Source of the DNA: Ptychodera flava
Lineage: Eukaryota > Hemichordata > Enteropneusta > Ptychoderidae
NCBI RefSeq assembly: GCF_041260155.1
Contig: NC_091943.1
Location: 17,969,283-18,033,282 of the forward strand
Length of the DNA stretch: 64,000 nucleotides
Reading direction: 5' to 3'
The notes below the pieces were generated by a model. It saw only the letters and a program-made list of their open reading frames with translations. It was not told the DNA's origin and did no database searches. A program made the translations under genes and the position numbers. Each line of letters opens with the position of its first letter. Positions within the stretch are counted from its first letter, which is position 1. Shown one piece after another: positions 18,301 through 61,589 of this stretch.

Positions 18301-21131
18301 GGGAAGGGAATGTTTGGTTCTGGGATTTATAAAGGCAACATTAATCAGGTTGAAAGGAATTAACATTTCTCACTTAATGTCATGCACTGAGCTTGTTTAC
18401 AGCACTGTAATGTGGTAAGTTACAGTTAATAATAATAATCTTTATTACCCTTAATCATATTAATATTACAATTCAGTAATGAATGTACATCTGAGTTGTG
18501 CTGTGATAAAGGGTAAACGGAAATGGAAAATAGCAAATGCTAGTCTAGTCCGTTCCCAAAGCCACTTGATGTTAAAGCAAGAAAAAGAAGAAGAAACAAG
18601 AAAAACTGTAGTATATCGAGGGTAGTGTAACACGAAAGTAGCTGGACTGCAAAGTAACCTAATTGTAACAAAGTAAATAAGTGAATAAAAGAAGAACTAC
18701 ATAAATAAATATATAACTAAATAGATACCTTACTAGTAAGTAAAAATACGTAAAAAGAAAACCATAAAAAACGTATAGAAAATATATATATAATATATAT
18801 TTAAATATTTAAATATATATTGTTGTTGTGTAGTGTATACACATTATATAATATAAGTTGATAGCACCACAACTATGCAGAGAGGATCTAGCTGGAAATT
18901 ATTGAAGCGGATTCGTTTTTCAGGTTAAGCCAGATAGGTAGGTTGGTTACTCATTTTAAGTATAACAAGAGAAATATGAGTAAATATTTCATTTTAAACT
19001 GAAATCTACAAGTGTTGCCATGGAAACATTGCCTTCCTTAATCGAGTGAATGCAAGCAGAACTCATGAAGTTTGTGACATCTGTTCCAAAACTAACGAGT
19101 TCTAGGTGAGAATGGCAAATCTTTTGTTATCAAAGTCAGTTTTTTTTAAATTATCAATGCATATTGTTGCCATGGTAAATGGGCATTAAAATATCAAAAT
19201 AACAAAAATTAGTCATGATTTGAATTGACCCTGTTAAATTGCCATTGTGCAGCAGTTTGATTTATATCAATATCTGTTCTCAATTTAAATCTACATTAGC
19301 TAACACAGCTTATTGTGATGACATTTATTTCAATTTCATTACATTTATTGGCTTTTGACCTTTGACCTTGCGTTCAACTGGACAAAGTCAAGGATAAATC
19401 TAGGACAAAAGTTAAACAACCAAACAGGTATATCTATTTTCAATTTAAAAGCTACATTAGCAAACACAGCTTACTGTTACGAAGTGAATTTCAATTTTAC
19501 TGTTTATTTGCTTTTGACCTTTGACCTCGTGGTCCAATGGACAAAATCAAGGACAATAGTTTAATGACCAAATAGGTTTAGCCTTCCATAAGACGTTCAG
19601 AGATATGTATCCATAGTATGTGTCTTGTAATAAAGTCTTGATATGAAGAATGTACTTGAAAGACTAACATTTCTTACATTCTGAAAATGATAATTGTAAG
19701 AAATACAAATTTGTATCGTTGCCATGGTAAAAGGACAGTAAACTACAGAATAGCAAAATTCAGTAAAGTTAAGCATTTTCTCTGTTGAATTGTCATATTG
19801 ATGAACTTTGATTTATATCAATATCTCTGTTTATAATTCCAAACCATCAGCAAAACACAGCTTATTACTAGTAATTCAACAACTGCTTTGCCAGTTTTAA
19901 CCTTTGACCTCTTTAACCCTGAGGTCAGTTTGAGAAATTTAAGTCTGACAGGTCAAGGTCCTAATTCCAGACAGATAACCCAACATGTTAAGCCTTCCAC
20001 AAAAAAATCAAACGAAAGTATCCATAGTACATGCACTCTGCCAAAATGGCATTTCTATTCTTAGTCTAGCATGTTAAAAAAACAAGTTTTAAGAACACAA
20101 ATTTACATTGTTGCCATGGTAAAAGGACATTCAAATATGGAATTACAAACATTTGTAAAATTGAGTATTTAACTTGATGAATTGTCATTTTGATGCATTT
20201 TGAACTGCGTTGATATCTATTCTTACTTTCAAGCTGTCTTTGTGTGAACAGTTTGTTACGCTGCAAATGCATTGCAATTCCACTCTGCTGATTGCTTGTT
20301 TTAACCTTTGACCTTACAGGTGGCTGGTCAAAATTCAAACTGGAGGGTCAAGGTCCTAGTCCAGGACAGAAGTTCAACAATCCACAAGGTTTAACATTCC
20401 ACAATGACAAACTTCTGGTGTGTGACAAAGGCAACAATGTTGTTCAGATACTGAACCAGGACTACACATGTGAAAAGGTGCTAGGAAGTTTCAGCGGTCA
20501 GTTGGCCAAACCATTCCAGCCACAGTCTGTAGCAGTCTCTCAGGACAACCACCACTACATACTTGATGACAGTAATTTGCAAATTATTGTCTGTGATCAA
20601 AATAATAAAGTTATAAGAATAATTACTTTACCTGGAGACACAAATCCCAGGTGCATAGCTCTCTTGAGAGGGTTTGTTTTGGTCACTGATGTCAAAGGTC
20701 ATAGGTTACTCAAGTACACCATGAATGGTCAATATGTTGGAGAGATTGGTAGTAAAGGTATTGGCCGTACAGAATTCAACTCTCCCTACTTTGTCGCTGT
20801 CAACAGTAGGGATGTCATCATGGTGTCTGACTATTGGAATTACTGCATCAAGTGTTTTGATGCTGATTTCAATTACCTGTACCAATACGGTGAGAGAGGT
20901 ACTGGCGATAGTCAGCTGTGCCTCCCATACAGCATTGCCGTTGATGGCGCTGACAATGTTTATGTTTGTGATCAATTCAATCATAGGATTTCGATTTGGA
21001 GTCGAGATAGGACTTTTATAGGTCATCTGTTCCAACATCAAGTGAGAGGCCCCTGCTACATTGCAGTCAGCCGAGACAGAATCTGTGTTAGAGGGGTGTG
21101 TGACGAACACATCACAGTATTTTCTAAGTAG
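14240..21131 (+). CDS. TRIM-NHL E3 ubiquitin ligase, gene A (3 coding exons)
   Basis: Join 14240-15350, 17899-18204, 20320-21131; all junctions are phase 1 and all splice sites GT-AG. The product is 742 residues, close to the usual TRIM2/TRIM3 length. RING C3HC4: C21, C24, C36, H38, C41, C44, C59, C62. B-box1: C103, C106, C114, C117, C123, C126, H130, H139. B-box2: C164, H167, C176, C179, C184, C187, H192, H197. A helical coiled coil spans about 200-335. The linker 371-472 is rich in Lys, Glu, Gln and Thr and takes the place of the filamin domain of TRIM2/3/71. The NHL propeller covers 473-742. Family knowledge: the RING recruits E2 and the NHL domain binds RNA or protein targets; the target here is unknown. 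The ATG is chosen because all three paralogues share it and its AGTC/TAGTC context. Confidence 0.88.
15714..16408. mobile_element. Element with GTCGCGCCAG inverted ends
   Basis: GTCGCGCCAG (15714-15723) and CTGGCGCGAC (16399-16408) are perfect inverted repeats, and the left flank leaves the sequence shared with genes B and C a few bases earlier. The interior has no recognisable gene. The target duplication is not clear. Confidence 0.5.
16425..17818. mobile_element. DNA element with CAGTGTTCTCCC ends
   Basis: The left end CAGTGTTCTCCCTAGG and the right end CAGGGAGAACACTG are inverted. Both sides are flanked by AGCCC (16420-16424 and 17819-17823), a likely 5-base target duplication. Both sub-ends carry 'ttacaagagggcg' motifs. 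It contains a second, foldback element at 16769-17302. Confidence 0.7.
16769..17302. mobile_element. 534-bp foldback element nested in gene A intron 1
   Basis: Long inverted arms begin CACAGGGGCTCATAAGTGGC on one side and end in its complement on the other. They pair almost continuously down to TTACTGTACTAA / TTAGTACAGTAA (17043-17054 and 17061-17072). The direct repeat TTATCACC occurs immediately outside both ends (16762-16769 and 17303-17310), consistent with a 7-8 base target duplication of hAT or Mutator type. It has no coding capacity. Confidence 0.88.
17899..18204 (+). CDS. Gene A exon 2: charged linker
   Basis: The acceptor is TGTGCAG| and the donor CCAG|GTAAGT; 306 bases, phase 1 to phase 1, encoding residues 371-472. 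The first residues (GKSIKSEE) and the last (SNLPCVFADSPG) are conserved in B and C, while the middle varies. The composition is Lys/Glu/Gln/Thr-rich and probably unstructured. I see no filamin-type fold and cannot assign a function. Confidence 0.85.
18427..18825 (-). mobile_element. Probable LINE 3'-end fragment in intron 2 of gene A
   Basis: About 400 bases starting AATAATAATAATCTTTATTA are absent from genes B and C at the same position (the 'gtggtaagttacagtt' / 'gttgatagcacc' neighbourhood). A plus-strand AAT/TTTATT start is typical of the 3' tail of a minus-strand LINE. No protein fragment was recognised. Confidence 0.45.
19145..20310 (+). repeat. Degenerate tandem copies of the NHL-exon boundary in intron 2
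   Basis: Repeated units contain 'ttgttgccatggtaaa.gg.ca', 'attgtcat.ttgatg...tttgatttatatcaatatct', then (T)TGACCTTTGACCT. Each is followed by a degenerate copy of the first ~80 bases of the NHL exon. The copies start near 19352, 19511 and 19907; the functional exon is at 20320. The second of these is a shorter partial unit. The TGACCTTTGACCT motif is on the other strand AGGTCAAAGGTCA. The same array occurs in gene C. Confidence 0.75.
20320..21131 (+). CDS. Gene A exon 3: NHL propeller
   Basis: Acceptor CTTACAG|; 812 bases to the TAG stop at 21129-21131, encoding residues 473-742. NHL hallmarks recur: F..P.G/S(V/I)AV, (V/I)CD..N..(I/V)Q(I/V), G..G.G..EF..P, and (V/I).V(C/S)D..N. Compared with gene C about 54 of 270 residues differ by hand count, 22 of them in the last 54. 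A long minus-strand open frame over this exon is a shadow of its codon use. Confidence 0.9.
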
Positions 21132-24391: not shown

Positions 24392-25722
24392 GTGTCTCCA
24401 ATCCTACTAAATATAAAGGACATAGCACTTGTGGTTATGTATTTATCGACATAGACGTATATTTCAGGTCAAAGGTCATCGAGGTCACATGACATTTGGT
24501 CCAAAAATTTCTATCCTATAGTTATCCTATATACCAAAAATCAGACATCTAGCTCTATGGGTTTGCTCAGAATTAGATATAAGCATAATTAATGAGGTAG
24601 AGTAAGAAGCATCATAAGGTCTCCCATCATACCATATATGAAGGGTGTAGCACTTGTGGTTACTGAGTTATGGACAAATATGTATATCTGAGGTCAAAGG
24701 TCATCGAGATCATGTGACATTTTGTCAAAATAATTGTATTGCTAAGTTATCGCTATATACCAAAATTCAGATCTCTAGCTCTATTGACTCGCTCAAAATT
24801 AGATATGCACATAATTAATGAGGTACAATATGTGGCATCATAAGGTGTCCCATCGTACCATATATGAAGGGTGTAGCACTTGTGGTTACTGAGTTATGGA
24901 CAAATATGTATATTTGAGGTCAAAGGTCACCGAGGTCACGTCACATTATGTCAAAAAAATCATATTGCTAAGTTATCCCTATATACCGAAAAGCAGACCT
25001 CTAGCTCTATTGGCTCGCTCAAAATTAGATATGCACATAATTAATGAGGTACAATATGTGGCGTCATAAAGTGTCCCATCATACCATACATGAAGGTAGT
25101 AGCACTTGTGGTTACTGAGTTATGGACAAATATGTATATTTGAGGTTAAAGGTCACCCAGGTCACATGACATTTTGTCAAAAAAATTGTATTGCTAAGTT
25201 ATCCCTATGTATCAAAAATCAGACCTCTAGCTCTATTGGCTTGCTCAGAATTAGATATAAGCATAATTAATGAGGTAGAGTATGAAGCATCATAAGGTCT
25301 CCCATCATACCATACATGAAGATTGTACCACTTGTGGTTACTGAGTTATGGACAAATATGTATATTTGAGGTCAAAGGTCACCGAGGTCACGTGACATTT
25401 GAAAAAAAGGGTATTGCTAAGTGATCCCTATATACCAAAAATCAGACCTCTAGCTCTATTGGCTCGCTCAAAATTAGATATGCACATAATTAATGAGGTG
25501 AATATGTGGCGTCATAAGCTGTCCCATCATACATTATATGAAGGGTGTAGCACTTGTTGTTACCGAGTTATGGACATATATATTTATATTTGAGGTCTAA
25601 GGTCACCAAGGTCACGTGACATTTTGTCAAAATATCTGAGATATCTCCGTGAACAGATGGACTCACGGATGGACATGACCCAATCTATAAGCCCCCTGGA
25701 CTTCATCCGTGGGGACTAAATA
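24392..25722. repeat. 226-bp tandem array, six units with AGGTCA half-sites
   Basis: The AGGTCAAAGGTCA box or a one-base variant recurs at 24466, 24691, 24917, 25143, 25369 and 25593, a period of 224-226 bases. Each unit also has 'cacttgtggttactgagttatgg', 'tagctctattg.ctcgctca' and 'cataattaatgaggta'. The array ends with a partial unit, then CCGTGAACAGATGG and 'ccgtggggacta'. In unit B the flank lacks the array. Confidence 0.92.
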
Positions 25723-31550: not shown

Positions 31551-31841
31551 CTATGTAGGATGAAGAAAAATAAAAGATTCTTGAAAGTCAAACAGCCAAA
31601 CTTGGGACCTTCTACCTTGTGTATTCTAATTGCATCACTCTGAAAGCCGTCTCAGGAAACTAGATTCTCCAGCTGTACTTTTAAGAAGATTGTGTGAATA
31701 GATCATCAAAAAAATAAAGGTAACTGAAGGCCTTACATTAATTATAGTTACTGTTCATAATTTTGAAATGAATGGTTTTGTACTGAGTAAAGCACTTTGA
31801 GAAATGAATCTTTCCATGTGGTTGAGATCGTTGAGAACTGA
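31551..31841 (-). other. SLC44 intron sequence, nothing recognised
   Basis: No feature recognised between the SLC44 exon and the 326-bp tandem array. Confidence 0.4.
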
Positions 31842-33945
31842 AAATACGGATAGTTTTCAATCGGATTCGAACCCACAACATAGGGCATCAGTCGCCTAGC
31901 TGAGAGGCCACAGACAGAACCACTCGGCTAAATCTCCACTCCCAAAAAAGAGTGGTTCAATAGCCGGCTAAGTTGTTACATTTTTCTGACTGAGACTGCT
32001 CAACACGTTGTAGAGTTCGTGAAGCACTCACGCACGCATGCTCACTATCATACATCGCACATACACACTTTATCGAAGCGAAGAAATAAATTTCATCGCT
32101 TTTTTTGGGCGAACGATAACCGCGGGGACAATTCTGTCCACCAGCAGTGTTACCAACCCAGGGTAGAAAATACGGATAGTTTTCAATCGGATTCGAACCC
32201 ACAACATACGGCATCAGTCGCCTAGCTGAGAGGCCACAGACAGAACCACTCGGCTAAATCTCCACTCCCAAAAAAGAGTGGTTCAATAGCAGGCTAAGTT
32301 GTTACATTTTTCTGACTGAGACCGCTCAACACGTTGTAGAGTTCGTGAAGCACTCATGCACGCACGCATGCTCACTATCATACATCGCACATACACACTT
32401 TATCGAAGCGAAGAAACGAATTTCATCGCTTTAACTGGGCGAACTAAAACCTCGGGGACAATTCTGTCCACCAGCAGTGTTACCAACCCAGGATAGAAAA
32501 TACGGATAGTTTTCAATCGGATTCGAACCCACAACATACGGCATCAGTCGCCTAGCTTAGAGGCCACAGACAGAACCACTCGGCAAAATCTCCACTCCCA
32601 AAAAAGAGTGGTTCAATAGCCGGCTAAGTTGTTACATTTTTCTGACTGAGACCGCTCAACACGTTGTAGAGTTCGTGAAGCACTCATGCACGCATGCTCA
32701 CTATCATACATCGCACATACACACTTTATCGAAGCGAAGAAACGAATTTCATTGCTTTAACTGGGAGAACGATAACCTCGGGGACAATTCTGTCCACCAG
32801 CAGTGTTACCAACCCAGGGTAGAAAATACGGATAGTTTTCAATCGGATTCGAACCCACAACATACGGCATCAGTCGCCTAGCTGAGAGGCCACAGACAGA
32901 ACCACTCGGCTAAATCTCCACTCCCAAAAAAGAGTGGTTCAATAGCCGGCTAAGTTGTTACATTTTTCTGACTGAGACCACTCAACACGTTGTAGAGTTC
33001 GTGAAGCACTCACGCACGCATGCTCACTATCATACATCGCACATACACACTTTATCGAAGCAAAGAAATAAATTTCATCGCTTCAACTGGGCGAACTATA
33101 ACCTCGGGGACAATTCTGTCCACCAGCAGTGTTACCAACCCAGGGTAGAAAATACGGATAGTTTTCAATCGGATTCGAACCCACAACATACGGCATCAGT
33201 CGCCCAGCTGAGAGGCCACAGACAGAACCACTCGGCTAAATCTCCACTCCCAAAAAAGAGTGGTTCCAGCCCCAATAGCTGCAAATTTTATGCATTATTT
33301 ACATGATTTTATTTTCAAACCACAGTTGGTTTGTTTTAATGTGCTAACTGAAGGACTTGGATAGAAGTATCACTGCTCGCTGATTTGGACCATGCCTACG
33401 TGTTTTAACGGGGTGAATAATAAACGGGTGCCGCACTCATAAAATGGCGCCCCCACAGAAAAGTACAAAAAAAAGCAGTATTTCCTGCACATACATGTTG
33501 TGATCATAAAAGGGACAAGCATGATGCCATTTACTTGAATGCACAGCAAACGGTGGTCAACATTTTGTTGTAGTAATCTTTATTTTCTTTGCCTCATGAT
33601 TAGTTTTTAAAAATGGCGGGAAATCTAAAATGATGTTAAAATTTGAATTTACATGCCACTTTCGACACTTAAGACAGTGTTATACACCTTTTCAGTCTTT
33701 AATGGGTCTCATTCAAAGAGAACTCTTAGAAAACGGGATATTTTGAGATCAGTTTATTGCACATTTGCAGCTATTGGGGCTTTCAATAGCCGGCTAAGAT
33801 GTTACATTTTTCTGACTGAGACCGCTCAACACGTTGTAGAGTTCGTGAAGCACTCACGCACGCATGCTCACTATCATACATCGCACATACACACTTTATC
33901 GAAGCGAAGAAACGAATTTCATCGCTTTAACTGGGCGAACGAAAC
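31842..33945 (-). repeat. 326-bp tandem array of tRNA-like SINE units
   Basis: Units start near 31841, 32167, 32497, 32823 and 33149 (period 326-330), and the last is completed at 33784-33945 after an inserted element. On the minus strand each unit has a pol III A box TAGCCGAGTGG (first copy 31920-31930) and a perfect B box GGTTCGAATCC (31863-31873), followed by ~230 bases of unrelated tail. The head resembles a class II (Leu/Ser) tRNA. CCACTC..GAGTGG beside it forms a small hairpin. The repeated plus-strand open frames are by-products. The array lies in an SLC44 intron. Confidence 0.9.
33267..33781. mobile_element. 515-bp DNA element inserted in the SINE array
   Basis: The perfect 19-base terminal inverted repeats AGCCCCAATAGCTGCAAAT (33268-33286) and its complement (33763-33781) bound a block that interrupts the array unit. 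The uninterrupted units read GAGTGGTTCAATAGCC. Here TTC precedes the element and TTC follows it (33264-33266, 33782-33784), giving a 3-base target duplication. No transposase is seen. Confidence 0.88.
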
Positions 33946-39513: not shown

Positions 39514-40627
39514 ATGGCTTCATCGTTAGACTCAAGAGAAAAACTGCTGACTGACATTGATGACAAGGTATTGCTTTGTGCAATTTGTATGGAGCGTTTC
39601 AAGTCACCAAAAATACTGCCTTGTCATCACACATTTTGTGAACATTGTCTCACAAAATGGGTCAAAGCAAACAACGGTCAGCTGATATGTCCAACCTGCA
39701 AGAATCAATGGCCTTTACCCTCTGGAGGGGTACAAGCTATTAGCAGCAATCGATTTTTGAATGACCTTATGGAGGCTATCGACAGCAACGCCCGTCCTGA
39801 AAGCATAGCTGAAACGGTGTGTGAAGGGTGTAAGAAATCCGACATGTACTGGTGTGGTGACTGTGGTGGACATTTTTACTGCAATCTCTGCATACAGACC
39901 CATAAAGTAGCAACAGTATTGCAAGATCATGAACCAATGACAATTGCAGAATACAAAGAGAAGATGTCAACACAGCACTTCAGAATGACTCAGCCAAGAT
40001 TATGTGATAATCACTGTAGTACTAAATTAGAATTCTACTGTGATACATGTCAAGTGCCGATATGTCATAAATGTACAGTCGTTGATCATCCATCACGAAA
40101 TCATGAGATGTTGTCACTAGAGTCAGCACTGGAGAAGTATATGCCAGATATGAAAGCATACTCACTGAAAATTGCTCAGAAAGTTAATGATTTAAAACTA
40201 AGAAAAGACAGAACATGTGGTGTTCGACAAAACCTGGATGTCAACAGATCTACAGTTGAACAACAAGTTAATATGCTATGTGAAAAATTAATTGATGAAA
40301 TTAAAAAGCAACAAATGAAAATGCTAGGTCAAGTTGATGAGATCTACATACCAAGGTGTAAACAAAGTGATGCCAATATAGAACTTCTGGAACATAAAAT
40401 TGCCAGTGCAGAAAGTATGCTTTCATATCTGAACCATCTCTTGACTTTTGGTGGAGCTGTGGACATCATGACTGCACATAAACAGATGAAAGATCAACAA
40501 CACCACCATGATGATCTGACCGATGTACCTTGTGGTGACAATGAGAGTGACCTGGTTTTCACAGAAAATCCTGACTGTTTACAGATTGATCTCGGTGTTG
40601 TCAACGGAAATCATCTGACCAAACAAG
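39514..40627 (+). CDS. Gene B exon 1
   Basis: Encodes residues 1-371. It is closest to gene C in the N-terminus (MASSLDSREKLL). The ATG is shared with both paralogues, and a good 5' UTR acceptor lies 25 bases upstream. Confidence 0.88.
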
Positions 40628-42606
40628 GTATATATGTTACTACAAGTAAAGGTAATTTTGAAACAATCGGGAGAAATCATCCTATATTTGACATCATGTT
40701 AAGTTGTGTGATGGTTTCAAATAGGTCATATAAATTGTTAGAATTAAAGTGGGTAGGCTTTGTTGTTTGTTGTTTCATAAGCAAACTTTTAAGAGATACA
40801 CGTATGGCACCTATAGTTTCTGATTTAAATATTGGGTCCTGATGTGGAAAATTTTGTGACAGACTTTCAACTTATTTTCTCGAAGTTTAAAACTCTGAAG
40901 GAATTCAAATATGCCTACACCATGAACATAATTAGCTGTAGCTTATCACAGATGCCTATATCACGTATCTCATTGGACAAATCTTATCTCAGATGCCAGA
41001 GTTCAGGTGACTTTCTGGCCTACAATATACAATGTAACTTATAACATTCAGCTCTGTCTCACCAATGTTATCTGTAAATTTATGCTATCCAGTGATACTC
41101 TTAACAGCACAAAGACAGTTGGGAGAATGTGAAAATGCAATCTAGTATCCTGCATGTCATAATGTAGGCAGTTATCTACTGGATTGTCTACAGAAAATAA
41201 CTCATACCAGTACATCTAATGCATGTACGATGTATGTCGGTTGAATACATAGCATGGTGAAACTACATTGGTGGGTCCCCTTAGGGAAGAGCCATTAGAT
41301 TTTATAGGGATGGATCGATGGAAGAAGGGAGTTATGGAAGCAATTTTCATTCTGTCACTATGACAGTTAGTACTGCATCAAATTATTTTTTCAATGTGTG
41401 GAAACAATGCTAATCCCCAGCAATTTGTAGAATGCACAAAATGATTATACCTTCATATCACTGGTTAATATTATGTTGTACTGAATTAAAAAATAATTTG
41501 CAGTGTTCTTAGTAGATTTAACTATTCATATCAAAATAAAAAAATTACTATTCATGTTTCTGTTATTTCAATTTTATTTATAAAGACAACTTGTAGAACA
41601 TCCAGTTAAAACAGACTTGTACAGAAGTTATTGTTGTTATTGCATTTTCATTGTCTTCAAACAAGAGTTGTTTGTTTGTATTACAAATAATCTATTGAAT
41701 CGATGCGTTGTTAAATTTTCACTATTTACAGGGTAATTCGAATTGTAAAGCAATGCATTTTAATACTCAGGCCGTAATAATGATTTATATTGCAATGTCA
41801 ATCTTGAAATATATTATCCAGGGTGTCATTGTAGCAAAACATTGAGTACGATGAGATTTGAGCAAATCTTTGTCATTTGTTTATATAATTAATGCTGATA
41901 CATCATATTACCCACACACATCTTCAGAAAATGTGAGATAATCAGATTTTACACATCTTACTATGATTTTGAACACATAACATACAGTTATTATCATTCA
42001 AGTAATCTTGTCGCATACTATATTTGAAACGCGTTCGATAATATCATTCATGGTAATTTGAGCTGAGTAGGGGCTTTTCAAATTGCTGCATTTCCTTAAC
42101 ATTAAAGACAAAGAAAACTAACAATTGTTCTCGTATTGGCACCAGATTTCGACGAAAGGCTTTCATGTAATAATAAACTTACATTGTATGCATGATATTA
42201 TTGCCACATGTAAACGTGGCTCAATAAGCATCATTTAATACGATATTGCAGAGTTCTAAAAAGCACATAAAGCTACTTACCTATTGCTTTAATATATGTG
42301 CAGGTAAAGCAATAAAATTTGAAGTAGAGAGGAAAGATGGAGACAGCATCGAGACAGTCACTCGCAATCAACTCCAGGTGCAGAGGGAAGAAAGAAGTGT
42401 GACTAAACAAACTGATAACACTGGACTTGTAGTGATTGGAGGATGTGAACTTGGTGTCGTTGTAAAGAAAGAGACACAGACCGAGCAACTTTTAGTACAA
42501 GCCAAACATCGTCAACCAACAAAAGAAGTCCAGCTAACAAAGAGAGAAACAAAGGCTGCGAAAAACAAGCAATCAAATCTGCCATGTGTGTTTGCAGATT
42601 CACCAG
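39514..42606 (+). CDS. TRIM gene B, RING/B-box/coiled coil without NHL
   Basis: Coding exons 39514-40627 and 42304-42606 (phase 1). RING ligands C22, C25, C37, H39, C42, C45, C59, C62 and both B-boxes are intact, and the coiled coil is close to that of A and C. The NHL exon is deleted except for a 3' scrap at 43159-43230. If exon 2 is spliced, the reading frame ends shortly after its donor (GKCPR, stop), giving about 475 residues. If intron 1 is retained, a 442-residue product results. The intron 1 donor is GTATAT, weaker than GTATGT in A and C. The open, little-changed frame suggests a working RING/B-box/coiled-coil protein or a recent loss; I cannot separate these. Confidence 0.78.
40628..42303 (+). 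other. Gene B intron 1
   Basis: Colinear with intron 1 of gene C over its whole length; this is the ancestral state without the transposons seen in gene A. No other feature is seen. Confidence 0.6.
42304..42606 (+). CDS. Gene B exon 2: linker
   Basis: Acceptor TGTGCAG|, donor CCAG|GTAAGT, 303 bases, no stops in the shared frame. It starts GKAIKFEVERKDG and ends KQSNLPCVFADSPG, as in A and C. Confidence 0.82.
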
Positions 42607-43158
42607 GTAAGTGTCCTAGATGAAGTTAATAATTATTCACTACAAGACCTAACTTTTGATACTTTGAATGGCGTTTTGACATAAAGCAATCAGAAGGGTG
42701 AAGGTGAATGTTTGATTCTGGGATTTCCATCAGGGCAAAATTAATCAGATTGAAAGGAATTTACATTTCTCACTTAATGTTATGCACTGAGCTTGTCCTA
42801 TGTGGTAAGTTACGGTTCTTGTATAGGTTGATAGCACCGCTGCTATGCAGAAAAAGAGGACGTAGCTGGAAATTATTGAAGCAGATTAGATTAGTTTTTT
42901 CAGACTTAAAGTATCACAAGAGAGATTTGAGTAAATAGTTCATTTTAAACTGAGATCTACAAGTGTTGCCATGGAAACTGCCTTTTTTAATCGAGTGAAT
43001 GTAAGCAGAGCTCATGATGTTTGCTACATCTGTTAGATATTCTAAATTATGAATGCAAAAATTGGATGGAATTTGCATGTTTGTATTTTTAGGGTATTTT
43101 TCCGTTTTTAGTCAAAAAATCTTGTTCTCTGAAATCACTCGTCTGATTGCTATGGTGC
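42607..43158 (+). other. Intron 2 of gene B with deletion scar
   Basis: Follows intron 2 of A and C to about 43024 ('gctacatctgtt'). Then about 120 bases of unmatched sequence replace roughly 1.95 kb containing the repeat array and most of the NHL exon. Confidence 0.65.
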
Positions 43159-43230
43159 ATTGCGGTCAGCTGAGACAGAATCTGTGTTAGAGGACAGTTT
43201 GACAATCACATCACAGTATTTTCTAAATAG
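43159..43230 (+). pseudogene. NHL exon remnant of gene B
   Basis: Reads IAVS, TGA, DRICVRGQFDNHITVFSK, stop. It matches the last 24 codons of the gene A NHL exon, with CGA changed to TGA. The following 3' noncoding sequence matches A and C. No acceptor or upstream NHL sequence remains. Confidence 0.9.
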
Positions 43231-44361
43231 ACAGAAACACCAAGATGATGTGTATAGCTCCATTTCATTAAAATATTGCATTTCTGTCTGTTATTCGAAA
43301 CTGTAGCTAGCTTTATTTCATTTTTGTGAAATCGGTCTGAACAAAGTTTCGCCATGTAAGTAAGAACAAAACGATCCCGTCAAAGCAACTCGAGAAATGT
43401 GATTTTTCAGCTTTCACTATTTTAGTAACTATCTTAAAGTCTAGTAAGTTTGCTTTAAAATGTGATGTAGCCTTCAGAGGCTACAGCTTGGTCGAATCTC
43501 TCTTTTGAAGTTGTAGTTGACTTTTTGTCGGAAGAAAGAAGCATTCTCTTTTTATAAAGTTTTAACATTTTCTATAGAATAAACATTCGATCGGAAAGAT
43601 TTTAACACCCATGTCTCTTACCATACAAGAGCATGAAGTTGAGTTTCGAGATTTCGGTCTCTCATTCGTCAGGTGAGTAAATTCTAAGTTCGGAAGTGCT
43701 AGTCGATCAGGTTTTTGTGAATAACGCCTCTTACGTTCAGTTTCTATAAGTGCTTTAGTTTTGGATTAGAAGTTTATTTAGGCAAGGTGCCTGTACAATA
43801 ATATTCTGTTGTTATGAAGGAAATTTCAAAGTTTAGGAATGCGAATATGAATACAACAGGTAATTTCAGAATTGAGGAAACGGTAGTCTAGTAAACAGGT
43901 GATGATTAATTTCTACAGTTGCCTGTTTTTTTTTCATTCTACATTTATACCTTTGTCATGTTATTTCTATTGAAGTTGCGATATCAAAGTTCATGCAACT
44001 GTAAATATTAGTCTTGACGTGGAAGTGTTTGCTCAATGTTAGTTGCATATGCTGTACTTTCCTGTTGTTTGTTGAATTTTTCTATCAACGTGTTTTACAA
44101 TTTACACTAACACGATTCTCAGTGATGTCACAATCTTTAGGTAAAAAGGTGGTCTTGCCTGTACTAGTGGAAATTTAAGTCAGTGCAGACGTTTGAGAGA
44201 AGTTTTATCAGGGCAATTACCTTTTGGCATATTATCTCCATTCCCTCATTATTGAGACTTTGGTGTTTGACTTTGGTGACTTTGCTTTTTTATCATAAAG
44301 TTGTATAACAATTCTTTCTGAATTATATTTCTGATGTATAAACTGTATATTTCTAAATAAA
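43231..44361 (+). other. Gene B 3' flank, poly(A) signal at 44356-44361
   Basis: Shorter than in A through several deletions but colinear. AATAAA with the conserved 'acctttgtacgttga' context is retained. Confidence 0.55.
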
Positions 44362-50195: not shown

Positions 50196-51060
50196 CTAGC
50201 ATAAACAAGTCATCGTTGATGACACAGTCCCCACGTGTTAATGGGTAATTTGATTACAGGTCCTCAGAGAGGATAGAGTCCTCTTCATAGGTCTGTAATA
50301 AAAATATTTTTGAATAAATTCGCTTGATACATGTCTGAGTTGTAGTTCAGGACATGAAAAAATCGTAATAAAATGCACAGCGGCCATATAAGATAGTATC
50401 ACAAAACAAATTGATGTGCATAGATATGACATTGGTCAATGTCCTTGTACCAACTTTGAATAAAATCTGTTGAAACATGCCTGAGTTATGGCTCTGTACA
50501 TGAAAAAATTGTAACAAAATGGCCGCCTGGCGGCCATATTGGATCGTATCACAAAACAAATTGACGTGCATATGTATGACATAGGTCAATGTCCTTGTAC
50601 CAATTTTGAATAAAATCGGCTGGGATATACCTTAGTTATGGCTCTGTACATGAAAAAATCGTAACAAAATGGCCGCACGGCAGCCATATTGGATCGTATC
50701 ACCAAAAAAATTAAAGTGCATATCTATGACATTAGTCATTGTCCTTTACCAACTTTGAATAAAATCAGTTGAAACATGCCTGAGTTATGGCTCTGTACAT
50801 GAAAAAATCGTAATAAAATGGCCGCCAGGTAGCCATATTGGATCGTATCACACAACAAATCGACGTGCATCTGTATGACATATGAAGTAATCCTTGTACC
50901 AAGTTTGAATGAAATCGCTCCAGGCATCTCTGAGATATCTGTGTGAACAGACGGATGCACGGACGGACGCACACACTGACGTACACACGCACGCACGCAC
51001 ATGACCAAACCTGAAAGTCCCCCCGGACAGCGTCCATGGGGACTAATAACTACTCGTGAT
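50196..51060. mobile_element. Inserted ~149-bp tandem array with terminal hairpin
   Basis: Units share ATGAAAAAATCGTAA.AAAAT, 'ggccgcc.gg..gccatattggatcgtatcac', 'gacgtgcat' and 'gtccttgtaccaa.tttgaataaaatc', with landmarks at about 50354, 50500, 50650 and 50800. It closes with an ACGGACGC run and an imperfect hairpin AGTCCCC..GGAC..GTCC..GGGGACT. The window-start copy reads 'ggctag' directly into 'atgaatca.agcc', so this block is an insertion. Confidence 0.75.
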
Positions 51061-51418: not shown

Positions 51419-53480
51419 CTAATCAATAGAGAAAGCCAATTTAAAAAGGTGTGTCTTAAGCATACGTTTAAAAGTATTAAAATTATTACAAGAACGAATA
51501 TTCACTGGAAGCTCGTTCCATAAAAATGGGGCTGCAGAACAGAACGCCCTATCACCATACCTTTTTGTCTTCGTCATGAATGTATTGAGTTTAAAATCGT
51601 TCGCAGAACGAAGTTTGCGCCTAGGTACATAAAAACTTATTAAATCTCTCAGATATTGTGGACCAGCACCATATAAACATTTAAAAGTAATAATTAAAAT
51701 CTTGTAAATGATACGCTGGTGTACAGGTAGCCAATGAAGTTCCTGCAGAAATGGTGTAATATGATCAGAACGCTTTGACCGAGTTATAACTCTGGCTGCT
51801 ACATTTTGAACATGCTGAATGCGATTAATCAAATACAGTGGTAAGCCATACAGCAAAGAATTACAAGAATCGATACGTGAGGAGACAAGCGAATGGATAA
51901 GTTGTTCAGTGGCAGATCTGGATAGGTACTTACGAATGAGGGCAATGCGTCGAATATGGAACATGGAAGAGCGACAAATATGACTGACATGAGATTTCAT
52001 AGTGAGACCGGAATCAAGAATGACGCCAAGGCTCTTTGCTTGACATTGGGTTGAAATCAGAGCATCACCTATACGAAGACTTCGCTCAAAACTTGAATAA
52101 AAGTCAAAATTCTTAGAGAAAATTACAAATTCTGTTTTATCATCATTAAGGCGTAAAAAATTTGAGGACATCCAGGCTCTGACATCTGAGACACAGGATT
52201 CAAGATTACTTACAGTGACATGGTAATTTTCACGTCGAAAAGACATGTACAGATTTGAGTCATCGGCATAAAAATGATATTTACAACCATGACGAGCGAC
52301 TACGTCGCCTAGGGGGGATGTGTAAACATTAAATAAAATTGGGCCAAGGACTGACCCTTGCGGTACACCTGTTTCCAGAGGATAATAGGGCGACTGGGTA
52401 GAATTTATGATTACCGCTTGTCTTCGATCGAAGAGATATGACTTAAACCACATCAAAGCATTATCAGTGACACCGAAACGATGGTGCAAACGCTTTAACA
52501 AAATTTCATGATTAACCGTATCAAAGGCGGCAGAAAGATCTAACATAACTAAAAATACATCCTGCTTAGAATCAAGTGCACATAAAATATCATTAGTGAC
52601 CTTTAATAGAGCTGTTTCAGTAGAGTGACCTTGTTTATAAGCCGATTGTAAGGGTTCATCTAAAGAATTGGAGACAATATGAGCTTTAAGTCTACGAGCG
52701 ACAATTCGTTCGAGAACCTTTGATAGGAATGGGAGATTTGAAATCGGGCGATAATTCTTAAGAGTGTTATGATCTAGTGAAGGTTTCTTCAGAAGAGGTT
52801 TTACGACTGCATCTTTGAAATCGGATGGTACAAAGCCAGACTGTAATGAGTTATTAAAAATATCTGTAATCAATGGTAAAAGAATAGTAAGGACATGCTT
52901 ATCCTTCAGGATCCTGGTGGGAATAGGATCAAGACAGCAGGAGGATGAGGGTGATGAGCGAATAATCTCATCAACCTCATCAACAGTAGTGAGCTGAAAT
53001 GAAGCCAGGCGACACCCAGGTCCCGAAGCAAAAACAGGTGTACAAAACTGGATAGTAACATTACCAATCGTTGAAGCAATATCAAGGATGAGCGATTGTA
53101 CACGGTTTATGAAGAACCGAGCAAACTGATCAGCCAGTTCAACAGAATCATTATAGTCAGGCAACGTGGATGAGTTTGAATGTTGTCCAAATAGACTGGT
53201 GACTATCTGGAAGAGCTTCTTCTGATCACCGGAGCAGTTTTCAACCAGGCCAGCAAAGTGACATTTTTTGGCGGTTTTAACCAATTGCACAACCTTTGTT
53301 CGAAGTTCTCTATAAATCTGACGATGAATTTCTAATTGTGACTTTCTCCAGGTTTTCTCAGCTTTCATCCTAGCTTTCCTCGCTTCGATGATTGAAGTCG
53401 TGATCCATGGGACAGTTTGGCGATTTGGAACAACTCGTATTCGCTGAGGAACATGATGGTCAAATGTGTCACGAATGATA
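51419..53480 (-). CDS. LINE reverse transcriptase (CR1/L2-like ORF2), 5' truncated
   Basis: One uninterrupted frame of about 687 codons runs from the truncation point at ~53480 (IIRDTFDHHVPQRIRVVP..) to a stop at 51419. Counted from the internal Met at 53368: RT fingers NYRPISNLPFLSKVLERI at 205-222, catalytic LDLSAAFDTVNH at 276-287, GVPQGSVLGPILF at 334-346, catalytic FYADD at 366-370, and thumb-region KSLGVILDSGLTMKSHV after about 445. The C-terminal HITPFLQELHWLPVHQRI and IIYKILIITFKCL are typical of CR1/L2 relatives. The N-terminal endonuclease is missing. The product copies its own RNA at a nicked target. The absence of stops implies recent insertion. It lies between a TAA tail and a TA microsatellite and splits the duplication unit. 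Confidence 0.92.
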
Positions 53481-53745
<265 letters not shown>

Positions 53746-54053: not shown

Positions 54054-54064
54054 CTGTCAGATCG

Positions 54065-54425: not shown

Positions 54426-54560
54426 GTAAGTTTCAAAATGTACACTATATATTTCACCTCCAAGGTGTGAGTTTTGAGTGTGTTTCACTGAAGGTAGAGA
54501 AATGTGTGGTCTTTGAAGGTCACCTATAGTATGGGAGGACAGTGTGCATTTGACGCCATA

Positions 54561-55862: not shown

Positions 55863-56976
55863 ATGGCTTCATCGTTAGACTCCAGAGAAAAACTGCTGAC
55901 TGACATTGATGACAAGGTATTGCTGTGTGCAATTTGTATGGAGCGTTTCAAGTCACCGAAAATACTGCCTTGTCATCACACATTTTGTGAGCATTGCCTC
56001 ACAAAATGGGTCAAAGCAAACAATGGTCAGCTGATATGTCCAACCTGCAAGAATCAATGGCCTTTACCCTCTGGAGGGGTACCGGCTATCACCAGTAATC
56101 GATTTATGAATGACCTTATGGAGGTTATCAGCAGCAACGCCAGTTCTGAAAGCATAGCTGATTCGGTGTGTGAAGGATGTAAGAAATCGGCCATGTACTG
56201 GTGTGGTGACTGTGGTGGACAATTGTACTGCAATGTATGCATACAAACTCATAAAGTAGTGAGAGTCTTGCAAGATCACGAACCAATGACAATTGCAGAA
56301 TACAAAGAGAAGATGTCAACACAGCACTTCAGAATGACTCAGCCAAGATTATGTGATAATCACCGTAGTACTAAATTAGAATTCTACTGTGATACCTGTC
56401 AAGTACCAATATGTCATAAATGTACAGTCGTCGACCATCCATCACGAAGTCACGAGATGTTGTCACTAGAGTCAGCACTGGAGAAGTATATGCCAGATAT
56501 GAAAGCATACACACTGAAAATTGCTCAGAAAATTAGTGATTTAAAACTAAGAAAGAACAGAGCATTTGGTGTTCGACAAGACCTGGATCTCAACAGGTCT
56601 ACAGTTGAACAACAAATTGATACGCTGTGTGAAAAATTAATTGATGAAATTAAAAAGCAACAAATGAAAATGCTAGGTCAAGTTGATGATATCTATAAAC
56701 CAAAGTGTAAACAAAGTGATGCCAATATAGAACTTCTGGAACACAAAATTGCCAGTGCAGAAAGTATGCTTTCATATCTGAACCATCTCTTGACTTTTGG
56801 TGGAGCTGTGGACATCATGACGGCACAAAAACAGATGAAAGCTCAAAAGCAGCACTATGATGATCTAACCAATGTACCCTGTGGTGACATTGACAGTGAC
56901 CTGGTTTTCACAGAAAATCCCGACTGTTTACAGATTGATCTTGGTGTTGTCAGAGGAAATCATCTGACCAAGCAAG
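55863..56976 (+). CDS. Gene C exon 1: RING, B-boxes, coiled coil
   Basis: Donor GCAAG|GTATGT, phase 1. Unspliced, the frame would continue to 57092 through intron sequence shared with gene B, which is not conserved as protein. Confidence 0.9.
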
Positions 56977-59900
56977 GTATGTTTCTACCAGTAAACTTTA
57001 AGGTAATTTTGAAACTATTTGGAGAAGTCATCCTGTATTTGATGTTGAGCTGTGTGTTGGTTTCAAACCAGTCATGGAAACTTTTTGAATGAAAATGTGT
57101 AGGTTTAGTTCGTTGTCTTAAAAGCAAACTTTCTACCTGAAAGGAGATTGTCATAGATATGCCACCTATAGTTCCTAACTTCAATATTGTTCCTGATGTA
57201 GAAAGAATTGTGATACAATTTTAACTTGTTCTCACAAATCTGTTAGGGAATTCAGCTATGTCTATATCATGTACAACATAGGCTGTAGCAGCCCTTGTCA
57301 TGTATATCATTGACAGATGCCAGAGTTCAGGTGACTTTCTGGCCTACAGTATACAATGTAACTCATAACATCCAGCTCTGTCTCACCAATGTTAACTGTA
57401 CACTTATGCCATCCAGTGATACTTTTAACAACACCAAACAGTTGGGAGAATGTGAAAATGCAATCTATCATACATGTCATACATGTAAAATAACCGTAAT
57501 CATACCAATCCATAATTCAATGGCATTAGGTAAGAATTCGTAACACAATAGTTGTAAACATAGACACAAACAGCACAGAACAGACAGTAAATAGACGGTA
57601 CACAAACAAAGTCATATTCATGAAAGAAAGATATATGGACCTCTGGCCAGAAGACCAAGAAGTGATGTAGGTAATAATCTATTGGATTGTCTGCAGAAAA
57701 TGTCTAATCTAATATATGTATGTTGTTCAAGCACATAGCATGGTAAAACTACATTGGTTGGCCCCCTTAGGGGTGAACCATTTGATTTTTTGGGGGATGG
57801 ATCGATAGACGGAGGTGGTTATGGTAGCATTTTTTTCTATCACTATGACAGTTAATACTGCATCAATTTTTTTTTAATTTGTGGAAATAATGATCAGCCC
57901 CCCCCCCCCTGCAATTTGTAGAATGCACAACATGATTATACCTTCATGTCACTGGTTAACATTATGTTGTACTGCATTAAAAAAATTTGCAGTGTTCTAA
58001 GTAGCTATATGTATCAATTTACTATTCTTGTTTTTGTTATTTCAATTTTCTTTACAAAAGACAAATTTTAGAACAGCCAGGAAACACATACTTGTACAGA
58101 ACTTATTGTTGTTCCTGTATTTCAATGTCTTTAAAAAAAAGTTGTTTGTTTGTATTACAAGTCCTTTGTCCTTTTTTTGAATCGATGATGTGTTTTTAGT
58201 TTTTCACAATTACAGGACAATTCACAGTTAACCAACACATTTTAATACTCATACTGTAATGATTTATATTACTATGTAAACCTTGGAATATGTTTTCCAG
58301 AGTGTCATTGCAGCAAAAATATTGAGTGCAATGAGTTTTGGCTAAACTATTGTCATGTGTTTATATCATAAATGCTTATAAATCATATTAGCCACACACA
58401 TCTTCAGAAAATGTAAGAATTTAGGATTTTACACATTTTGCCATAATTTTGAACACTACAGCTATTATTGTTCAACTAATCTGGTCCAGTACTATATTTG
58501 AAATGCGTAAGATAATATCATTCTTGGTAATTTGAGCTGAGTAAATGCTTTTCAAGTTACTGCACTCCCAACAATTCAGAATAAAGAAATCTGACATTTG
58601 TTCTCGTATTGAGCGCTTTCTTTCCCTAGGTATCACCAGATTTTAGTCAAAAGCTTTTGTATTATATTATGCATGATATTATTGCCACAGGTGAGAGTGG
58701 TTCAATAAGCATAATTCAATATGATATTGCAGAGTTCTAAAAAGCACCTAAAAACTACCCATCTATTGCTTTACTATGTGTGCAGGTATAGCAATAAAAT
58801 CTAAATTGGGAAGTAAAAATGGAGATAGGATGGAGACAGTCACTCGCAATCAACTCCAGGTGAAGAGGGAAGAGGGAAGTGTGACTAAACAGACTGGTAA
58901 CACTGGACCTGAAGTGATTGGAGGACGTGAACTTTGTGTTGAAAAGAAAGAAACACAGCCTTCTGAGCCACTTGTAGTAAAAGCCAAACAACATCAGCCA
59001 ACAAAAGAAGTCCAGCAATCAAAGAGAGAAACAAAGGCTACTAAAACCAAGCAGTCAAATCTGCCATGTGTGTTTGCAGATTCACCAGGTAAGTGTACCG
59101 GATGAAGTTAACAATTATTCAGTACAAGAGTAGACCTGACTTTTGATACTTTGACTGGATTTTTGACATATGGCAATCGGTAGGGGAAAGGTGAATGTTT
59201 GGTTCTGGTTCTGGGATTTATAAAGGCAAAATTAATCCGACTAAAAGGAATAAACATTTTTCACTTAATATCATGCACTGAACTTGTTTACAGTGCTATA
59301 ATGCGGTAAGTTACAGTTGTTGTTGTGTAAAGTGTATGTATTCTATAATATAAGTTGACAGCACCACTACTATGTAGAGAGAGAGGACCCAGCTGGAAAT
59401 TATTGAAACAGATTGGTTTTTTAAGTTAAGCCAGGCAGGTAGGTTGGATACTCATTTTAAGTGTTACAAGAGAGATATGAGGAAAATTTTATTTTAAACT
59501 GAAATCTACAAGTGTTGCCATGGAAACATTGCCTTCCTTTATTGAATGAATGTAAACAGAATTCATGAAGTTTAAGGCATCTGTTCCAGAACTAATGGGT
59601 TCTAGATGAGAACAATGGTAAATCTTTCTTTATCAAAGTTAGTTTTGTGAATTATCAATGCATATTGTTGCCATGATAAATGGACATTAAAATATCAAAA
59701 TAACAAAAAATGTCAAGGTTGTAATTGACCCTGTTAAATTGCCATTATGCAGCAGCTTGATTTATATTAATATCTATTCTCAATTATAAGCTACACTAGC
59801 AAAGACAGCTTATTGTCATGGCATTTATATGAATTTCATTACCTTTATTTATTTTTGACCTTTGACCTCTTTGACCTTGCCGCCAACTGGACAAAGGTTA

Positions 59901-61589
59901 AATCTAGGACAAAAGTTAAAGAACCAAACAGGTATATCTATTTTCAACTTAAAAGCTACATTAGCAGAGACAGTTGTTTATTTGCTTTTGACCTTTGACC
60001 TTGTGGTCAACTGGACAAAATCAAGGACAATAGTTTAATGACCAATTAGGTTTAGCCTTCCATAAGACATTCAGAGATATGCATCCATAGTATGTGTCTT
60101 GCAATATAATCTTGATATGAATTTACTTGAAAGGATAACATTTCTTACATTCTGATAAAAGATAATTGTCACAAATGCAAATTGGTATCGTTGCCATGGT
60201 AAAAGGACAGTAAAATATGGAATAGCAAAAGTCCAGTAAAGTTTAGGATTTACTTTGTTGGATTTGTCATATTGATGAACTTTGATTTACATCAATATCA
60301 CTGTTTATAATTCCAAACCATCAGCAAACACAGCTTATTAATTCAACAACTGCTTTGTCAGTTTTAACCTTTGACCTCTTTGACACTGTGGTCAATGGGA
60401 GAAATTTAAGTCTGACTGGTCAAGGTCCTAATTCCAGACAGATAATCAAACAGGTTTAGCCTTCCACAAAAACATCAAACACATTTATCCATAGTACATG
60501 CACTCTGCAAATATGGCATTTGTTTTCAGTCTAGCATGATGAAAAGTAAGTTTTAAGAACAGAAATATACATTGTTGCCATGGTAAAAGGACACTAAAAT
60601 ACGGAATTACAAAATTTGTAGAATTGAGTATTTACCTTGATGAATTGTCATTTTGATGCACTTTGAACTGTGTTGATATCTATTCTCACTTTCAAGGGGT
60701 GTTTGTGAGAACAGTTTGTTACGCTGCAAATGCATTGCACTCTGCTGACGTGCTTGTTTTAACCTTTGACCTTACAGGTGGCTGGTCAAAATTCAAACTG
60801 AAGGGTCAATGTCCTAGTCCAGGACAGAAGTTCAACGATCCGTGTGGTTTAACATTTCACAATGACCGACTTTTGGTGTGTGACAAAGGCAACAACGTAG
60901 TTCAGATACTGAACCAAGACTACACATGTGAAAAGGTGCTGGGAAGTTTCAGTGATCAGTTTGCCAAACCATTCAAGCCACGGTCCATAGCAGTCTCTCA
61001 GGACAACTACTTCTACATACTTGATGACAATAATTTGCAAATTATTGTTTGTGATCAAAATAATAAAGTTATAAGAATAATTACTTTACCTGGAGACACA
61101 AATCCCTGGTGCATAGCTCTCTTGAAAGGGTTTGTGTTGGTCACCGATGCTAAAGGCCATAGGTTACTCAAGTACACCACGAATGGTCAATATGTTGGGG
61201 AGATTGGTAGTCGAGGTCATGGCTGTACAGAATTCAAGTACCCCTACTTTGTCGCTGTCAACAGTAGGGATGTCATCATGGTGTCTGACTGTAACAATCA
61301 CTGCATCAAGTGTTTTGATGCTGATTTCAATTTCCTGTACCAATACGGTGTGTACGGTCACGGCGATAGTCAGCTGGACCTCCCACACAGCATTGCCTTT
61401 GATGGCGCTGACAATGTCTATGTTTGTGATTACTACAATGATAGGATTTCGATGTGGAGTGGAGATGGGACGTGGAAATATCATCTATTCCAAGGTGAAG
61501 GGATCTGGCCCTGGTACATTTCAGTCAGCCGAGACAGAATCTATGTTAGAGGCTGGAATGACAAATACATTACAGTATTTTCTCAATAG
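55863..61589 (+). CDS. TRIM-NHL E3 ubiquitin ligase, gene C (3 coding exons)
   Basis: Join 55863-56976, 58786-59088, 60778-61589; phase 1 throughout; 742 residues. RING ligands C22, C25, C37, H39, C42, C45, C59, C62; B-box1 from C103; B-box2 from C164; coiled coil about 200-335; linker 372-472; NHL 473-742. It is free of lesions and has the best-preserved gene structure of the three, including the 5' UTR acceptor that gene A has lost. Against gene A the RING/B-box/coiled-coil part differs at about 12% of residues, but the last 54 NHL residues at about 40%. Expected activity: ubiquitin transfer to targets chosen by the NHL face; the target is unknown. Its poly(A) signal should lie a few hundred bases beyond the window end. 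Confidence 0.9.
56977..58785 (+). other. Gene C intron 1
   Basis: Colinear with intron 1 of gene B. It contains a run of C at 57899-57909 and small indels only. No gene is seen. Confidence 0.6.
58786..59088 (+). CDS. Gene C exon 2: linker
   Basis: Acceptor TGTGCAG|, donor CCAG|GTAAGT, 303 bases. It starts GIAIKSKLGSKNGDR and ends KQSNLPCVFADSPG. Same phase and ends as A and B. Confidence 0.85.
59640..60765 (+). repeat. Degenerate NHL-boundary tandem copies in gene C intron 2
   Basis: The same arrangement as 19145-20310: TTTGACCTTTGACCT boxes near 59856, 59989 and 60366, each followed by sequence resembling the first ~80 bases of the NHL exon. The functional exon is at 60778. The array therefore predates the duplication of A and C. 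Confidence 0.75.
60778..61589 (+). CDS. Gene C exon 3: NHL propeller
   Basis: Acceptor CTTACAG|, stop TAG at 61587-61589, residues 473-742. Variable spots against gene A: GSRGHGCTEFKYP / GSKGIGRTEFNSP, SDCNNHC / SDYWNYC, GVYGHGD / GERGTGD, CDYYNDR / CDQFNHR, FQGEGIWPWY / FQHQVRGPCY, RGWNDKY / RGVCDEH. Between these the sequence is nearly invariant. The minus-strand open frames over it are shadows. Confidence 0.9.

What the first reader, a model, noticed from the sequence alone, without database searches (positions are those of the whole stretch)
20320..61589. Hypervariable NHL face between tandem TRIM-NHL paralogues, pattern of diversifying selection
In the last 54 codons of the NHL exon genes A (20970-21128) and C (61428-61586) differ at about 22 residues. 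By hand, about 35 nucleotides differ and only about four of the changed codons are synonymous. The ~120 bases of 3' noncoding DNA right after the stop differ at only about four positions. Changes cluster in spots spaced like propeller loops (FQHQVRGPCY / FQGEGIWPWY, RGVCDEH / RGWNDKY; the gene B scrap has RGQFDNH). The RING/B-box/coiled-coil part differs far less. Family knowledge: one propeller face binds RNA or protein, so this resembles a recognition module under pressure, as in immune TRIMs with B30.2 domains.
Basis: partly seen in the sequence, partly recalled or inferred. Interest (0 to 1): 0.88.

Follow-up and report, generated by a model that had tools for sequence, protein, structure and literature searches.

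The report
Acorn-worm TRIMs with hypervariable propeller face
In an acorn worm, a family of ubiquitin-ligase-type proteins carries a propeller-shaped C-terminal domain whose frame is conserved while likely ligand-contacting spots on one face change faster than neutral DNA, as expected of an immune-type recognition module, here built on a domain (NHL) better known for binding RNA.

Summary
The window is Ptychodera flava (C = P0031, 100%). Forty-four aligned NHL domains share a conserved frame with a few positions of up to 12 residue types. Sites chosen without A and C have dN above neutral: ML omega 12.7 (p=2e-15), or 6.2 (p=1.5e-7) chosen from distant paralogues. Positions equivalent to published LIN-41 RNA contacts give 5.4 (p=1e-7). 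The same choice in exon 1 gives 0.34-0.80. On an AlphaFold2 model changes sit in top-face loops of blades 4-6 (omega 3.0; bottom 0.52). Related NHLs are fused, in predicted gene models, to GT4-conflict and death-effector domains. Best reading: a diversifying recognition module working like B30.2 TRIMs or fungal WD40 NLRs. Corrections: the 123-nt flank is an atypical baseline, and the 54-codon block alone reaches only 1.22. Immune function and ligand are inferred; one DNA pair carries the codon evidence.

The parts
14240..15350 (+). Gene A exon 1: RING, two B-boxes, coiled-coil region (370 codons)
   Evidence: ORF, Pfam RING and B-box hits, splice junctions read
17899..18204 (+). Gene A exon 2: linker
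20320..21131 (+). Gene A exon 3: six-bladed NHL propeller (270 codons and stop)
   Evidence: PF01436 63.2 bits; translation and alignment
20748..21110 (+). Gene A: stretch holding the hypervariable top-face loops of blades 4-6 (codons 144-155, 172-175, 191-202, 219-222, 240-244, 260-264)
   Evidence: AF2 strands of C's domain, codon tests
39514..40627 (+). Gene B exon 1: RING/B-box/coiled-coil region, still constrained (branch omega 0.33)
42304..42606 (+). Gene B exon 2: linker
43153..43288 (+). Gene B: remnant of the NHL exon and adjoining 3' DNA; in-frame stop
   Evidence: blastn and tblastn, sequence, translation
55863..56976 (+). Gene C exon 1: RING, two B-boxes, coiled-coil region (371 codons)
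   Evidence: identical to P0031
58786..59088 (+). Gene C exon 2: linker
60778..61589 (+). Gene C exon 3: six-bladed NHL propeller
   Evidence: PF01436 72.8 bits; AF2 model pLDDT 94, 24 strands
61206..61568 (+). Gene C: stretch holding the hypervariable top-face loops of blades 4-6 (same codons as in A)

Best explanation
Genes A and C are intact members, and B a member that lost its propeller, of a large Ptychodera flava family of RING/B-box E3-type proteins. Their C-terminal NHL beta-propeller is a recognition module under strong diversifying selection. SHOWN: between A and C one propeller face, made of d-a and b-c loops and mainly in blades 4-6, has changed faster than neutral DNA while the opposite face, the strands and the RING/B-box part are constrained; the fast positions include those with which LIN-41 contacts RNA; related NHLs occur in predicted proteins with other N-termini (GT4-conflict, DED). 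INFERRED: each paralogue binds a different, changing ligand (most likely a pathogen-derived protein or nucleic acid, less likely an allelic self marker), and binding drives ubiquitination by the RING or, in the other fusions, a different effector. Diversity would arise by duplication, point substitution under recurrent positive selection, and perhaps short exchanges between copies. So it works like the B30.2 face of TRIM5-type TRIMs or the WD40 face of fungal HET-D/HET-E NLRs, but on an NHL propeller.
For: Codon tests A-C: the 20 most variable sites among 22 paralogues (A and C excluded) have 29.5 of 50 nonsynonymous sites changed, against 183 of 1661 intron sites (Fisher p=5e-16); shared-dS ML omega 12.7, LRT 63.2; sites chosen from the 27 paralogues under 70% identity to C (7 of them also among the 22) give omega 6.2, p=1.5e-7. 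The 24 positions P-1, P+1, D+1, D+2, where 13 of 14 published LIN-41 contacts lie (Cys563 is at P-2), give omega 5.35 (p=9.6e-8), hold 11 of the 20 most variable sites (1.8 expected) and have mean entropy 2.12 against 0.64 elsewhere. 0 of 100,000 random 24-site sets reach the observed change. Counting one event per codon, so that multi-base mutations cannot inflate it: 17 of 20 codons are aa-changed, p=4e-7 at the intron rate, 2.5e-5 at the exonic synonymous rate. Face: top 32 of 84 residues differ, bottom 5 of 46, p=0.001. A against P0033: 94% identity at 250 frame sites, 20% at the 20 variable ones; these are rich in R, Y, H, W. Negative control: exon-1 variable sites, omega 0.34-0.80. Fusions; GT4-fused P0039 and P0045 nest with RBCC-fused NHLs (clade of 19, support 0.957).
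Against: Only one DNA pair (A-C) carries the codon evidence; the other paralogues are proteins only. Within the 20 sites themselves omega is 2.5 with just 10 synonymous sites and Fisher p=0.31, so significance comes from the shared neutral baseline. By entropy alone the contrast with exon 1 is modest: in the same 8 paralogues the 20 highest values average 2.20 bits in the NHL and 1.81 in exon 1. Contact-equivalent positions of blades 1-3 are weaker (2.57, p=0.033), and top loops before residue 144 give 0.43. The TRIM-filamin-NHL proteins P0081 and P0082, meant as a conserved control, also differ most at these positions (12% against 44% identity), so the face is variable in NHL domains beyond this family. 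No expression, ligand or infection data. The fusions are unverified gene models. C and P0032 share 53% of the 20 variable residues (86% of frame) whereas A and P0032 share 16% (93% of frame): exchange or convergence that I could not separate.
Confidence: 0.72

Rival explanations
1. Relaxed constraint or early pseudogenisation of the NHL exon after duplication.
For: Exon 3 as a whole has omega 0.71 and the linker exon about 0.9; gene B has lost its NHL.
Against: Relaxation cannot push dN above the neutral rate, yet ML omega is 4.1-12.7 at pre-chosen sites; both exons are open, the rest of the NHL has omega 0.45-0.65 and the bottom face 0.52.
Confidence: 0.05
2. Short-tract gene conversion or recombination among paralogues reassorts old variable residues; little recent positive selection is needed.
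For: C shares 53% of the 20 variable residues with P0032 although A is closer to P0032 in the frame (93% against 86%); tandem copies on one chromosome.
Against: Silent sites in codons within two of the variable ones differ at only 2.0 of 29.7, so tracts would have to be about codon sized; the family-wide variation itself still needs diversifying selection.
Confidence: 0.15
3. Functional divergence for different endogenous RNA or protein targets (development, RNA regulation), not host-parasite conflict.
For: Known NHL domains bind RNA and differ between families at this face (PMC5908797, passages and one section; PMC9634614, passages).
Against: The many P. flava paralogues, up to 12 residue types per site, variable sites rich in R/Y/H/W, and fusions to GT4-conflict and DED domains look like a repertoire rather than a few specialised regulators.
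Confidence: 0.15
4. A codon-targeted mutational mechanism, such as directed hypermutation, drives the changes.
For: 13 of 20 variable codons differ at two or three bases, against 7 of 250 elsewhere.
Against: Silent sites nearby show no excess and the changes spread over all three codon positions. I did not search for a template, cassette or mutator.
Confidence: 0.04

Closest known systems
Fungal HNWD NLRs HET-D/HET-E (PMC1805685, passages read; PMC4986451, passages)
   Same: A beta-propeller with a few positively selected positions per blade on the interaction face, in a multigene family with other effector domains attached.
   Different: WD40 rather than NHL, NACHT NLR rather than RING/B-box, near-identical repeats under concerted evolution; here single 6-blade domains with divergent blades.
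Fish and primate B30.2 TRIMs: finTRIM, BTR, TRIM35/HLTR, TRIM5alpha (PMC3137616, passages; PMC2533329, passages)
   Same: RBCC protein, multigene expansion, hypervariable positively selected C-terminal recognition loops.
   Different: C-terminal domain is B30.2 there; no SPRY/B30.2 hit in A or C. PMC2533329 finds its fast-evolving SPRY group 2 absent from invertebrates.
TRIM71/LIN-41, Brat and human TRIM2/3 NHL domains (PMC5908797, passages and section 8 part 1; PMC9634614, passages)
   Same: Six-bladed NHL on a TRIM; the same within-blade positions contact RNA in LIN-41.
   Different: No filamin hit in A or C; contact positions are hypervariable instead of a fixed basic pocket. Ptychodera also has a filamin-TRIM-NHL protein, P0081, only 31% alike in the RBCC part.
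Metazoan GT4-conflict and DED/TRADD-N immune expansions (PMC8195603, passages)
   Same: Marine invertebrate lineage-specific expansions, hemichordates included, with GT4 or DED effectors and, in amphioxus, variable WD40 propellers.
   Different: The term NHL has 0 occurrences in that paper's main text.
TRIM56 (search listing and starts of abstracts only)
   Same: RBCC plus NHL-like C terminus with antiviral activity.
   Different: A vertebrate gene (recalled as single-copy); no comparison was made here.

Membership tests
TRIM (RBCC) proteins | RING finger followed by one or two B-boxes | tested here: met
   Pfam RING and B-box models above cut-off in A, B and C
TRIM (RBCC) proteins | coiled coil after the B-boxes | tested here: inconclusive
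   TRIM_CC matches (13.6-18.4 bits) lie below the 30-bit cut-off
TRIM-NHL (class VII) | C-terminal six-bladed NHL propeller | tested here: met
   PF01436; AF2 model pLDDT 94 with 24 strands; TRIM3 and TRIM71 best solved relatives by sequence
TRIM2/3/71 subgroup | filamin domain between coiled coil and NHL | tested here: not met
   no filamin hit in exon 1 or NHL of A and C nor among P0031's precomputed domains; present in P0081 and P0082
LIN-41-type RNA-binding NHL | conserved basic RNA-contact residues | tested here: not met
   the 24 equivalent positions have mean entropy 2.12 bits against 0.64 elsewhere and hold 11 of the 20 most variable sites
B30.2 immune TRIMs | PRY/SPRY C-terminal domain | tested here: not met
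   no SPRY hit
B30.2 immune TRIMs (works like) | positively selected recognition loops beside a conserved RBCC | tested here: met
   one gene pair:
Fungal HNWD NLR | NACHT plus WD40 repeats with high internal identity | tested here: not met
   no NACHT or WD40 hit in A or C; RING/B-box and NHL instead
Immune effector | induction by, or activity against, a pathogen | not testable with these tools
   no expression or functional data at hand

The most novel reading that the evidence does not exclude
Acorn worms carry a germline-encoded, combinatorial innate repertoire in which one hypervariable NHL face is plugged by exon shuffling onto several outputs (RING E3, GT4-conflict, death-effector domain), an animal counterpart of fungal WD40 NLRs in which selection changes single codons several to about ten times faster than neutral DNA.
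Probability: 0.5. Interest if true: 0.88.

Novelty: new variant of a known kind. Interest (0 to 1): 0.78.

Why it matters
TRIM-NHL proteins are known mainly as developmental and RNA regulators (general knowledge; abstracts), and fast-evolving TRIMs are described as a vertebrate SPRY group (PMC2533329, passages). A deuterostome invertebrate family with a hypervariable, positively selected NHL face would add another scaffold to the short list of germline-diversified recognition domains. It names exact residues, so the old question of what NHL faces recognise becomes testable by binding and swap experiments among natural variants. In the open-access library, the papers listed by my searches (25 of 235; 15 of 36; none found; 12 of 268; 12 of 109) include none whose title or abstract start reports positive selection in NHL domains or a TRIM-NHL expansion in hemichordates; the rest of those hits and subscription journals were not seen. 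In the hemichordate genome paper PMC11175523 the terms NHL, tandem and expan have 0 occurrences and TRIM only in read trimming.

Tried and rejected
Own-genome search: no genome is held. Coding DNA of other paralogues: the genome, phage and plasmid collections offered hold no animals and metagenome scans were capped at 0, so I made no such scan; site-wise multi-sequence codon models (M8, MEME) could not be run, and I used a pairwise fixed-sites model written in Python instead.

The filamin-TRIM-NHL pair P0081/P0082 was meant as a conserved control and failed as one: its contact positions are also the less conserved ones. ARAGORN (bacterial code) and Rfam on the window: nothing. NCBIfam gave only generic NHL, propeller and RING matches far below cut-off. 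The viral-structure search lists many propeller proteins and is not used. A paper search with a one-term minimum gave irrelevant hits.

Dropped before counting: of the 63 proteins, the NHL alignment left out P0031 (identical to C), P0030 and P0063 (distant prokaryote-type hits), 14 covering less than 85% of the domain and 4 duplicates, leaving 42 plus A and C. The alignment for the structure job used 31 sequences, A and C included. The exon-1 control used 13 paralogues (two partial ones, P0038 and P0046, dropped).

Full report
WHAT WAS CHECKED. The counts are right: 35 nucleotide, 22 residue and 4 synonymous-codon differences in the last 54 codons, 4 differences in 123 nt from the stop on. Both genes are intact as spliced: three coding exons, 742 codons each. 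A third copy, B, keeps exons 1 and 2 but has only a remnant of the NHL exon with an in-frame stop.

WHERE IT IS FROM. Gene C's protein is identical to P0031, a Ptychodera flava protein on a 41-Mb contig. P. flava is an enteropneust hemichordate. A and B are not among the 84 proteins returned; the nearest of these to A's NHL are 87-89% identical.

THE FAMILY. Forty-four non-identical NHL domains, A and C included, were aligned and read on C's 270 positions. Among 22 paralogues at 65% identity or more to C (A and C left out), 131 of 270 sites have entropy below 0.5 bits while a few carry up to 12 residue types. At the 20 most variable sites mean pairwise identity among the 22 domains used (A and C included) is 15%, against 77% elsewhere; A and P0033 agree at 94% of the frame and 20% of these sites. 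Arginine, tyrosine, histidine and tryptophan are over-represented there.

SELECTION. Because the variable sites were chosen without A and C, the A-C DNA pair is a fair test. NG86 at the 20 sites: 29.5 of 50 nonsynonymous sites changed, 3.5 of 10 synonymous; elsewhere in the exon 42.2 of 593.8 and 21.8 of 156.2. With so few synonymous sites inside the set, the within-set Fisher test is not significant (p=0.31). The appropriate baseline is the neutral rate of the locus: intron 2 differs at 183 of 1661 sites. A pairwise codon model with dS shared over all exons gives omega 12.7 at the 20 sites (LRT against 1: 63.2); 6.2 (LRT 27.6) if the sites come from the 27 paralogues under 70% identity, 7 of which are also among the 22; 4.1-12.7 over nine choices, each with p of 1.5e-7 or less. 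Exon 1 has 0.41-0.43, the linker 0.88-0.92, the rest of the NHL 0.45-0.65 in these fits.

CONTROLS. Choosing variable sites in exon 1 the same way (13 paralogues) gives counting omega 0.34-0.80 over three pairs and three set sizes. By entropy alone the two domains differ less: in the same 8 paralogues the 20 highest values average 2.20 bits in the NHL and 1.81 in exon 1. Multi-nucleotide mutations could inflate omega, so one event per codon was counted: 17 of 20 codons are amino-acid-changed where 29.5% of triplets would differ at the intron rate (p=4e-7) or 38.4% at the exonic synonymous rate (p=2.5e-5). Silent sites in codons within two of the variable ones differ at 2.0 of 29.7, which speaks against conversion tracts or a local mutation hot spot wider than a codon; nonsynonymous sites of those same codons are raised (14 of 114.3).

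GEOMETRY. Kumari et al. name 14 zebrafish LIN-41 residues in contact with RNA (PMC5908797, section 8 part 1 read). Placed on the chain printed, they fall at five within-blade positions: two before, one before and one after the anchor proline, and one and two after the aspartate that ends strand b. The 24 Ptychodera positions equivalent to four of these (13 of the 14 contacts) have mean entropy 2.12 against 0.64 in the close group; among shifts of this mask by up to 12 residues the next best value is 1.09 there and 1.56 (against 2.44) in the distant group. A-C omega at the 24 is 5.35 (p=9.6e-8), 9.0 in blades 4-6 and 2.6 in blades 1-3. The AlphaFold2 model (mean pLDDT 94, pTM 0.92) shows 24 strands. 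With loops taken from it, mean entropy in the close group is 1.22 on the top, 0.71 on the bottom and 0.51 in strands; A and C differ at 32 of 84 top-loop residues, 5 of 46 bottom-loop residues and 16 of 136 strand residues; top loops from residue 144 on have omega 3.0, earlier top loops 0.43. The face is therefore real but lopsided: blades 4-6 carry it. Model coordinates were not at hand, so faces rest on the strand order and general propeller topology.

OTHER OUTPUTS. NHLs of this family also sit behind GT4-conflict domains (P0039, P0045, P0051, P0054, P0061) and a DED (P0016). On a tree of frame sites only, rooted on P0061, P0039 and P0045 fall inside a clade with the RBCC-fused copies (19 members, support 0.957; support inside it is lower), while P0051 and P0054 lie in another clade. 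The RBCC part in turn is found with Deltex C-terminal domains in P. flava and Glandiceps, and with WWE-PARP in Glandiceps. GT4 and DED fusions are described as conflict or immune modules in marine invertebrates, hemichordates included (PMC8195603, passages). All these fusions are database gene models and unverified.

READING. Strong diversifying selection on one face of the NHL propeller is well supported for this pair. That the face recognises changing foreign ligands is the best explanation, not a demonstration. It works like B30.2 TRIMs and like fungal WD40 NLRs, where four positions per repeat are selected (PMC1805685, passages), but belongs to neither: no B30.2, no NACHT or WD40 hit. It lacks the filamin domain of TRIM2/3/71 and has no fixed LIN-41-like pocket.

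LIMITS. One DNA pair carries the codon evidence. The filamin-TRIM-NHL proteins P0081 and P0082 also differ most at these positions (12% against 44% identity), so the face is plastic beyond this family. C and P0032 share more variable residues (53%) than A and P0032 (16%) although A's frame is closer: exchange or convergence is open. Expression, ligand and polymorphism are unknown.

Noticed in passing
window 39514-43288: Gene B lost its NHL exon, yet its RING/B-box exon is about as constrained as in A and C (branch omega 0.33 against 0.39 and 0.23). P0064, an NHL-less 468-aa paralogue on a contig of the same length, appears to end by reading past the exon-2 donor: NHL-less members may be kept.
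   Followed up: partly
window 21129-21251 and 61587-61709: The 123 nt from the stop on differ at 4 sites between A and C, less than intron 2 (11%): perhaps a conserved 3' UTR element or a conversion tract.
   Followed up: no
window 51419-53503, minus strand: LINE-type reverse transcriptase ORF of 694 aa (PF00078, 131 bits) between genes B and C.
   Followed up: no
window 24394-25632, 31840-33266, 50309-50917: Tandem arrays of 226, 326 and 150 bp units; the 326-bp unit holds a tRNA-like GGATTCGAACCC stretch, but ARAGORN and Rfam find nothing.
   Followed up: partly
P0075 and P0078 (Glandiceps talaboti), P0069 (P. flava): The same RBCC module is fused to Deltex C-terminal (P0069, P0075) or WWE-PARP (P0078) domains in predicted hemichordate proteins.
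   Followed up: no
P0039 and P0051: The segment between GT4 and NHL may be a TRADD-N domain; this is recalled from its look, and Pfam lists no such domain there.
   Followed up: no
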